The notes under the pieces are model-generated. The model did no database searches. It was not told where the DNA came from and saw nothing but the letters and a program-made list of their open reading frames with translations. 37,934 bases of DNA from Streptomyces sp. AcH 505 (GTDB lineage: Bacteria; Actinomycetota; Actinomycetes; Streptomycetales; Streptomycetaceae), in contig NZ_JTIY01000001.1 in assembly GCF_000818175.1 (NCBI RefSeq), positions 6,767,580 to 6,805,513 of the forward strand, in the 5' to 3' direction. Below are positions 20,078-37,934 of this stretch, piece by piece (within the stretch, counting starts at the first letter, position 1; every line of letters begins with the position of its first letter). The position numbers were made by a program, and so were the translations under genes.

Positions 20078-23000
20078 GTGTCCGGTATCGAAGAAGTCCT
20101 GGTCCACTGGCGGCACTTGCTCGAAGCCTTCGCGCCGGAGACGGCACGTACCGCCACGGACGAGGAACTGCTCGCCGCCCGGGTGGCGCTGCGACACCGG
20201 TACAGCCAGGCACCGGACATATCCCTCGGGGACGCCGCGGAACCGGTACGGATCGAACTCGGCGACGAGCCCACGTTCCGCGAACTGACCCGGCGGGCAG
20301 GGGTGGCACTGGCCGCCGCACGCGCGGAGGCCGTGGAAGTCAGGGCCTCCTTCGGCGCCGACACGGAGAGCGGCACCGACACCGACACCGAAGGCCACTA
20401 CCGGACGCTGCTCGCGGACGCCCTGGCCCGCCCCGATCTGCCGGTCACCGAACTGGAGTTGACCACCCCGGCCGAACGCCGCCGGGTGCTCGTCGAGTGG
20501 AACGCGACGGAGCACTCCGTCACCCCCGGCACCTGGCCCGCCCTGTTCGCCGAGCAGGTGAAGGCGCGCCCCGAAGCGGTCGCGCTCGTCTTCGAGGACC
20601 AGCGGCTCAGCTACGCCGAGCTGGACGAGCGGGCCAACCGGCTCGCGCACGCCCTGATCGCCCGGGGCGCCGGACCCGAACGCGTGGTGGCGCTGGCGCT
20701 GCCCAGGTCGGTGGAACTGATCGTCGCCGAGGTCGCCGTACTCAAGTCCGGCGCCGCCTACTTGCCGGTCGACAGCGACTATCCCGCCGACCGGATCGGC
20801 TACATGCTGGCCGACGCCGAGCCGGTCTGCCTCGTCACCACCACGGCCGTCACCGACGACATCCCGGCGGACGAGGACCGGCAGAGTGCCGACGGCCGGG
20901 GCGGCATGGCGCGCCTGCTGCTCGATCTGCCGGAGACCGCGGCCGAGTTGGCCGACCGCCCCGCCCACGACCCCACCGACACCGACCGGGGCGCCGCGCT
21001 CACCACCCTCAACGCCGCGTATGTCATCTACACCTCGGGTTCGACCGGCCGCCCCAAGGGCGTGGTGCTCTCCCACGCGGGCGTCGCCGGGCTCGTCGCC
21101 ACCCAGACCGAGCGGTTCGGCATCGGACCGGCCAGCCGCGTCCTGCAGTTCGCCTCACCGAGCTTCGACGTCGCCTTCTGGGACCTCTGCCTCGGGCTGC
21201 TGTCCGGCGGCCGGCTCGTCGTCGTCCCGTCCGAACTTCGGGTACCCGGCGCCGCGCTCGCCGACTACGCCAACGCCCACGGCATCACGTTCATGATCCT
21301 GCCGCCCGCCCTGCTCGCCGCCATGCCCGACGACGCCCTGCTGCCCCCGGGCGCCACCCTGCTGGCGGGCACCGAGCGCGTCTCACCCGAACTGGTCGGC
21401 CGGTACGCGCGCGGCCGGATGATGTTCAACGCGTACGGCCCGACCGAGGCCACCACCAACTCCACGCTCGGCCTCTGCGATCCGGACATCCCCGCGGGCG
21501 CCGTCGTGCCCATCGGGGTCCCCGACCCCGGCACCCGCGCCTACGTGCTGGACGCGCGGCTGCGCCCGGTCCCCGCCGGGGTGCCCGGCGAGCTGTACCT
21601 CGGCGGAGCGGGCCTCGCCCGCGGTTACCTCGGCAGGCCGGGGCTGACCGCCGAGCGGTTCGTCGCCGATCCCTTCGGCGCGCCGGGCGAACGGCTCTAC
21701 CGCACGGGCGACCTGGTGCGCTGGAAGCCCGACGGCAGGCTGGAGTTCCTCGGCCGCGCCGACACCCAGATCAAGATCCGGGGTTTTCGCATCGAACCCG
21801 GCGAGATCGAATCCGTACTGCGCGCCCATCCCGCCGTCGGCCAGGCGGCCGTCGTCGCACGCGAGGACCAGCCGGGCCTGCGGCGGCTCGCCGCCTATGT
21901 GGTCCCCGCCCTCGACGCCCGCCGGGAGACCGACGAGAGCCGGCAGGTCGAAGAATGGAAGGACCTGCACGAACTGCTCTACAGCGCGGCCGGTTCCGAC
22001 GGCTTCCGGGAGAACTTCGCCGGCTGGAACAGCATGTACGACGGACTGCCCATCCCCGTCGGGGAGATGCGCGAGTGGCGCGACGCCACCGTCGACCGCA
22101 TCCGTGAACTGGGCAGCCCGGGAAAGGTCCTGGAGATCGGCGTCGGCAGCGGACTGATCCTGTCCCGGCTCGCGCCGGAGTGCGAGACGTACTGGGGCAC
22201 GGACCTCTCCCAGGAGGCGACGCGGGCGCTGCGCGCCCAGGTAGCCGCCGTGCCGGAACTGGCGGACCGGGTGCACCTGCGCGCCCAGCCCGCCCACGAC
22301 GTCGAGGGACTGCCCACCGGCTTCTTCGACACCGTCGTCATCAACTCCGTCGCCCAGTACTTCCCGAGCGCCGACTACCTCACCGGCGTCCTGCGTGACG
22401 TGTCCGCGCTGCTGGCACCCGGCGGCCGTGTCTTCGTCGGCGACGTACGCAACCAGCGACTGCTGCGCACCCTGCGCGCGGCGGTGGAGAGCCGGCGGGA
22501 CCACGACGACAAGAGCGCCCTGCGCGCGGCGGTCGAGCGGTCCGTCGCCTGGGAGGGGGAACTGCTCCTCGACCCCGACTACTTCGCCGCGCTCGACGGC
22601 TTCGAGGCCGACGTACTGGTCAAGTGCGCCGCCCACCACAACGAACTGAGCCGCTACCGCTACGACGTCGTCCTGCGCACCCGAACCACCGGCGACGGCC
22701 AGGAAGCGGCCGAACCCGGCACCGAGGAGCGGGAGATGGCCTGGTCGGCGGTCGGCCGTCCCGACGCCCTTGCCGAACTGCTCGCCGCAGGACCCCACCG
22801 GCTGCGGCTCACCGGTGTGCCCAACGCCCGGCTCACCGAGGACCTGGCCGCACTGCGCACCCTGGACGACAGCAGCGGCCCCGCGGTCCACGCGGCCGAC
22901 CCCGAGGACCTGCGGGCGCTCGCCGCCCGGCACGGGTACCGGACCGCCGTCACCTGGAGCGGGCACGCCGACGACGGCGCCCTCGACATCGTCCTCCAGG

Positions 23001-37934: not shown

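What the first reader, a model, noticed from the sequence alone, without database searches (positions are those of the whole stretch)
20078..37934. A giant single-gene NRPS for an N-methylated hydroxamate siderophore that I cannot match to a known product
One uninterrupted frame carries A-MT-T / C-A-T / C-A-MT-T / C-A-T / C-A-T-E(partial). Seen: two built-in methyltransferases, a serine code in module 2, a hydroxyornithine code in module 3, and two codes (modules 4 and 5) I do not recognise. Known: N-methyl-hydroxyornithine with formyl-hydroxyornithine and serine occurs in scabichelin-type peptides. Inference: the product is (N-Me)X1-Ser-(N-Me)hOrn-X4-D-X5 or longer, with X1 likely formyl-hydroxyornithine. 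Placement of methyl groups at 1 and 3 plus a D-residue at 5 may be a new arrangement.
Basis: partly seen in the sequence, partly recalled or inferred. Interest (0 to 1): 0.75.

Follow-up and report, generated by a model that had tools for sequence, protein, structure and literature searches.

The report
Ordinary scabichelin-type iron-scavenger gene cluster
The giant gene belongs to an already known gene cluster of soil actinomycetes that makes the iron-scavenging peptide scabichelin, so the finding is real but ordinary.

Summary
In detail: one frame (20078 to window end, 5,952 aa) encodes A-MT-T / C-A-T / C-A-MT-T / C-A-T / C-A-T-E(partial). The claim that it matches no known product fails. 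The NRPS at the scabichelin locus of Streptomyces scabiei 87.22 is collinear over the window protein (71% identity), with the same domain order and methyltransferases in the same modules. Three A-domain codes are identical and two differ by one residue. Eight of eight cluster neighbours (oxygenase, formyltransferase, importer, exporter genes) lie there in the same order and orientation, with iron-box-like sites in the same two intergenic spaces. Predicted product: N-Me-formyl-hOrn – Ser – N-Me-hOrn – Orn – cyclo-hOrn, 647.360, equal to the printed scabichelin mass 647.36; some turgichelin (Ser at 4) is possible, as reported for S. scabiei. The record reads N beyond the window, hiding the end of the E domain. 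Of 75 relative loci fetched, 22 carry the same complete domain string. Low interest.

The parts
14618..15961 (-). ornithine N5-oxygenase-like protein (makes hydroxyornithine; inferred)
   Evidence: best NCBIfam match histamine N-monooxygenase, far below its cut-off; 78% identical to the S. scabiei gene at the same place
15997..16015 (.). iron-box-like palindrome between oxygenase and formyltransferase
   Evidence: 0 mismatches to a pattern loosened after reading the site; same place in S. scabiei
16050..16997 (+). formyltransferase (N5-formylation of hydroxyornithine; inferred). Start picked by my script; an ATG at 16038 is also possible
   Evidence: NCBIfam formyltransferase families, below cut-off; 82% identity, syntenic
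16964..17788 (-). ferric-siderophore ABC importer ATPase (FepC-like)
   Evidence: below cut-off; 80% identity
17808..18875 (-). ferric-siderophore importer permease (FepG-like)
   Evidence: below cut-off; 77% identity
18877..19875 (-). ferric-siderophore importer permease (FepD-like)
   Evidence: below cut-off; 82% identity
19926..19944 (.). weak iron-box-like site before FepD
   Evidence: 3 mismatches
19995..20013 (.). iron-box-like palindrome upstream of the NRPS
   Evidence: 0 mismatches to the loosened pattern; same intergenic space in S. scabiei
20078..37934 (+). five-module scabichelin-type NRPS, 3' end missing (record reads N from 37935)
20492..21988 (+). A1, code DVWILGATN (formyl-hydroxyornithine inferred)
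   Evidence: identical code in S. scabiei
21947..22570 (+). N-methyltransferase of module 1
23243..23443 (+). T1
23492..24868 (+). C2
24887..26353 (+). A2, code DVWHFSLVDK (Ser)
26426..26623 (+). T2
26666..28048 (+). C3 (motif [10 protein letters not shown])
28076..29593 (+). A3, code DMWNLGLIN (hydroxyornithine)
29546..30172 (+). N-methyltransferase of module 3
30845..31048 (+). T3
31103..32455 (+). C4
32480..33970 (+). A4, code DGWDTGLVDK (ornithine inferred, S. scabiei type)
34049..34249 (+). T4
34292..35641 (+). C5
35675..37183 (+). A5, code DAWEGGLVDK (hydroxyornithine)
   Evidence: code and substrate in PMC7692728
37256..37456 (+). T5
37499..37930 (+). first 144 residues of the C-terminal epimerisation-type domain
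   Evidence: profile from three relatives, window not in the seed; the complete S. scabiei counterpart passes TIGR01720

Best explanation
This is a scabichelin biosynthesis and transport cluster of a Streptomyces-like actinomycete (taxon inferred from its nearest relatives). Ornithine is N5-hydroxylated and partly N5-formylated. The five-module NRPS joins N2-methyl-N5-formyl-N5-hydroxyornithine, serine, N2-methyl-N5-hydroxyornithine, ornithine and hydroxyornithine; the last residue cyclises on release. The peptide leaves through the paired ABC exporter, binds Fe(III) with three hydroxamates and returns through the FepB/D/G/C-like importer, under iron-box control. Some turgichelin (serine at position 4) may be made as well. 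Shown: anatomy, codes, synteny. Inferred: each enzyme's reaction, ornithine at position 4, the release step, the regulation and the product.
For: S. scabiei 87.22 NRPS (L047) is collinear, 71% identity over 6,091 aligned columns; same domain string. Codes A1, A3, A5 identical; A2 and A4 one residue apart, window/scabiei DVWHFSLVDK/DVWHLSLVDK and DGWDTGLVDK/DGWDAGLVDK. 8 of 8 cluster neighbours lie at the S. scabiei locus in the same order and orientation. A4 groups with S. scabiei A4 (22-row clade, 100/97), apart from the serine-code A4 of S. turgidiscabies. DAWEGGLVDK is in print as the scabichelin module-5 code for hOrn (PMC7692728). Predicted mass 647.360 equals the scabichelin mass 647.36 quoted there; Orn to Ser gives [M-H]- 619.306, C24H43N8O11, the turgichelin ion quoted in PMC10458595. 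Iron-box-like sites in the same two intergenic spaces.
Against: The primary paper (Kodani 2013) is not held, so residue order and stereochemistry were not read; the assignment rests on mass, codes and collinearity. PMC8914351 reports turgichelin as well as scabichelin from the S. scabiei cluster, so the A4 code may not fix position 4. A4 has T where S. scabiei has A at the fifth code position. The end of the gene is hidden. NCBIfam matches of the eight neighbours are all below curated cut-offs, so their functions are at family level. There is no chemistry from the window's strain.
Confidence: 0.9

Rival explanations
1. Same family, but the main product has serine at residue 4 (turgichelin) rather than ornithine.
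For: 13 of the 21 complete five-module relatives with five readable codes carry a serine code at module 4. PMC8914351 reports turgichelin beside scabichelin from the S. scabiei cluster, whose A4 code is of the window's type.
Against: Window A4 code is DGWDTGLVDK, not DVWH[ML]SLVDK; 69% identity to S. scabiei A4 against 52% to S. turgidiscabies A4; separate supported clades.
Confidence: 0.05
2. A close analogue of scabichelin in which A4, with its T-for-A code change, takes another amino acid, giving an unreported congener.
For: One code position differs from S. scabiei; window A4 branches first in its eight-row Streptomyces subclade, support 88/95.
Against: The same code occurs in S. zinciresistens (L053, partial locus), and A, S, T, V alternate at this position in DGWD-type relatives, suggesting tolerance.
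Confidence: 0.06
3. A truly new siderophore arrangement.
Against: Same order, near-identical codes, methylation pattern and neighbours as a characterised cluster.
Confidence: 0.02

Closest known systems
Scabichelin cluster, Streptomyces scabiei 87.22 (BGC 33a, SCAB_85431-85521, PMC8914351)
   Same: NRPS domain order, both MT positions, codes A1, A3, A5 identical and A2, A4 one residue apart, eight of eight cluster neighbours in order, iron-box places
   Different: 71% NRPS identity; A4 code T for A, A2 code F for L; 3' end of the NRPS unseen in this record
Serine-type five-module cluster, Streptomyces turgidiscabies Car8 (L034); turgichelin assigned by recall and code
   Same: Same five-module architecture; codes of modules 1, 2, 3, 5 identical to the window
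   Different: Module 4 carries a serine code; identity to the window falls to 29-34% in the core of A4
Albisporachelin, albachelin, amychelin (Amycolatopsis)
   Same: Formyl-hydroxyornithine, serine and C-terminal cyclic hydroxyornithine (PMC6024995)
   Different: Albisporachelin has four residues, all L. The six Amycolatopsis loci fetched (L033, L046, L055, L061, L071, L072) have another module order; their products were not checked

Membership tests
scabichelin-type NRPS cluster | single NRPS A-MT-T-C-A-T-C-A-MT-T-C-A-T-C-A-T-E | tested here: met
   of E only the first 144 residues are seen
scabichelin-type NRPS cluster | five A-domain codes as in S. scabiei | tested here: met
   A1, A3, A5 identical, A2 and A4 one residue apart; substrates of A1 and A4 inferred
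scabichelin-type NRPS cluster | module 4 of the S. scabiei (DGWD) type, not the serine (DVWH) type | tested here: met
scabichelin-type NRPS cluster | ornithine oxygenase and formyltransferase beside the NRPS | tested here: met
scabichelin-type NRPS cluster | siderophore importer and exporter genes flanking in the same order | tested here: met
scabichelin-type NRPS cluster | gene ends with a complete E domain, as the S. scabiei frame does | tested here: inconclusive
   hidden by the N run; distance to the next gene, 1384 bases against 1311 expected, fits
scabichelin-type NRPS cluster | production of scabichelin under iron limitation | not testable with these tools
   needs culture and LC-MS
serine-type (turgichelin-like) variant | serine code in module 4 | tested here: not met
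   DGWDTGLVDK

The most novel reading that the evidence does not exclude
The synthetase makes an unreported scabichelin congener with a residue other than ornithine or serine at position 4, allowed by the T-for-A change in the A4 code.
Probability: 0.06. Interest if true: 0.25.

Novelty: already known. Interest (0 to 1): 0.1.

Why it matters
It does not change what is known: it is one more carrier of a siderophore cluster that occurs in many actinomycetes. A modest side value is that the family shows a natural A-domain exchange at module 4 (ornithine-type against serine-type core, flanking domains alike), a guide for NRPS engineering.

Tried and rejected
Peptide deformylase (13972-14592) as a cluster gene: rejected. 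In none of the 10 relatives searched does a match lie beside the oxygenase; the nearest on a shared contig is about 105 kb away.

The apparent 6,455-aa gene: rejected. It reads through the N run. Ten bases after the run the 3' end of the FepB-like gene on the other strand begins, so the NRPS stop most likely lies inside the run.

Strict iron-box pattern: 0 matches. A looser pattern, written after reading the intergenic sequence, gave 8 rows that make three sites. The S. scabiei search (5 rows, two places) is the independent check.

Codes: reading A3 to A5 by eye, without an alignment gap, gave E, E, Q at the third code position. The MAFFT alignment puts W there, as the published module-5 code does; I use the aligned reading.

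MbtH: the only match in the genome lies elsewhere. A separate thioesterase gene was not searched for.

Literature: Kodani 2013 is not held. Searches: scabichelin, turgichelin, related names, precursor terms, tsukubachelin, iron-box terms. Seen: passages of PMC8914351, PMC10458595, PMC7601586, PMC8227522, PMC9228471, PMC8269251, PMC12224167; passages and one section of PMC7692728; two of three parts of PMC6024995. All others as listings only.

Full report
What is there. The frame 20078-37934 (+) is open to the window end. Pfam finds AMP-binding, Condensation, PP-binding and two methyltransferase stretches, and family profiles give A-MT-T-C-A-T-C-A-MT-T-C-A-T-C-A-T-E with E cut after 144 residues. 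The profiles were built from the window and three relatives, so they are not independent of them; Pfam is, for the window. The record reads N for 1,374 bases from window position 37935; I cannot tell whether this is an assembly gap or a withheld stretch.

Comparison. Among them is S. scabiei 87.22 (L047), whose NRPS frame aligns with residues 1-5950 of the window protein at 71% identity. PMC8914351 assigns the scabichelin cluster of this strain to SCAB_85431-85521, 30,019 bases (passages). That L047 is this cluster is my inference from strain, size (about 29.6 kb from exporter to oxygenase) and gene content; the next oxygenase match in that genome is 34% identical. PMC7601586 independently describes the S. 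scabiei enzyme as five C-A-T modules with a single E and a second, central N-methylation domain (passage).

Synteny. Of thirteen proteins tried against the S. scabiei flanks, the eight cluster neighbours were found (oxygenase 78%, formyltransferase 82%, FepC 80%, FepG 77%, FepD 82%, FepB 74%, exporters 76% and 66%), in the same order and orientation around the NRPS. The other five (ArsR-like, deformylase, 9746-12850, and two genes beyond the exporters) had no match there. Oxygenase and formyltransferase have strong matches (72-80% and 80-86%) lying side by side in 10 of 10 relatives chosen from the 75 loci.

Codes. With MAFFT-aligned A domains the window reads DVWILGATN, DVWHFSLVDK, DMWNLGLIN, DGWDTGLVDK, DAWEGGLVDK; S. 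scabiei reads DVWILGATN, DVWHLSLVDK, DMWNLGLIN, DGWDAGLVDK, DAWEGGLVDK. The tenth position of A1 and A3 is left out because the methyltransferase is inserted before it. The code positions were set from recalled GrsA core motifs. PMC7692728 prints DAWEGGLVDK as the scabichelin module-5 code for hydroxyornithine, and the order A/MT/T-C/A/T-C/A/MT/T-C/A/T-C/A/T/E for Phytohabitans relatives.

Position 4. 22 relatives have the complete five-module string (a vestigial N-terminal C remnant allowed; loci with split or truncated domain calls not counted). 21 of them gave five codes: 8 of DGWD type and 13 of serine type; the one dropped is L077. S. turgidiscabies Car8 (L034) is of serine type. The window A4 falls in the DGWD clade (22 rows, 100/97), and in a smaller group with S. 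scabiei (8 rows, 88/95). Against a strict reading, PMC8914351 reports turgichelin together with scabichelin from the S. scabiei cluster, so a DGWD-type A4 may also load some serine. That S. turgidiscabies makes turgichelin is recalled, from no call.

Product. N-Me-fhOrn + Ser + N-Me-hOrn + Orn + cyclo-hOrn is C26H49N9O10, 647.3602. PMC7692728 quotes 647.36 for scabichelin. Orn to Ser gives C24H44N8O11, matching the turgichelin ion C24H43N8O11 in PMC10458595, there only putatively annotated. Mass alone does not prove the order; it agrees with the collinear codes. PMC6024995 says that scabichelin and turgichelin, unlike albisporachelin, are not all-L, in keeping with an E domain. In S. scabiei the frame ends with that domain, which passes TIGR01720; I recall that family as typical of E domains.

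Regulation and transport. Iron-box-like palindromes lie between oxygenase and formyltransferase and between FepD and the NRPS, and in the same two spaces in S. scabiei. The FepB-like lipoprotein and the exporter pair lie beyond the N run.

End of the gene. From the S. scabiei alignment 1,311 bases are expected between the window end and the 3' end of the FepB gene; 1,384 are present. The NRPS therefore very likely ends inside the N run after a normal E domain.

Verdict. Known kind, known product predicted, low interest.

Noticed in passing
32480-33970 (A4), against L034 and L047: Natural exchange of the A-domain core at module 4: over window protein aa 4336-4455 the window is 67-75% like S. 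scabiei but 29-34% like S. turgidiscabies, while the flanking C and T domains are about equally alike.
   Followed up: partly
L017, L018, L020, L027, L030-L032, L035 and others: Relatives with six modules: an extra serine-code module between module 4 and the final hydroxyornithine module; products not looked up.
   Followed up: no
26666-28048 (C3): C3 reads [10 protein letters not shown] instead of HHxxxDG; the same form (RHL[IL]LWDGWS) stands in 50 of the 51 relatives printed, S. scabiei included (L077 has HHVLVWDGWS), so it is a family trait.
   Followed up: partly
13972-14592: A peptide deformylase lies beside the oxygenase; not beside it in the 10 relatives searched.
   Followed up: yes
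L077: Jidongwangia harbinensis has the same domain string with another module 2 code (DPLVLGVIQK) and no module 4 code read by my script, a possible different product.
   Followed up: no
G000 C1:5.93-5.96 Mb and C2:0.71-0.75 Mb: Other large NRPS regions in the same genome; the only MbtH match is about 12 kb from the second.
   Followed up: no
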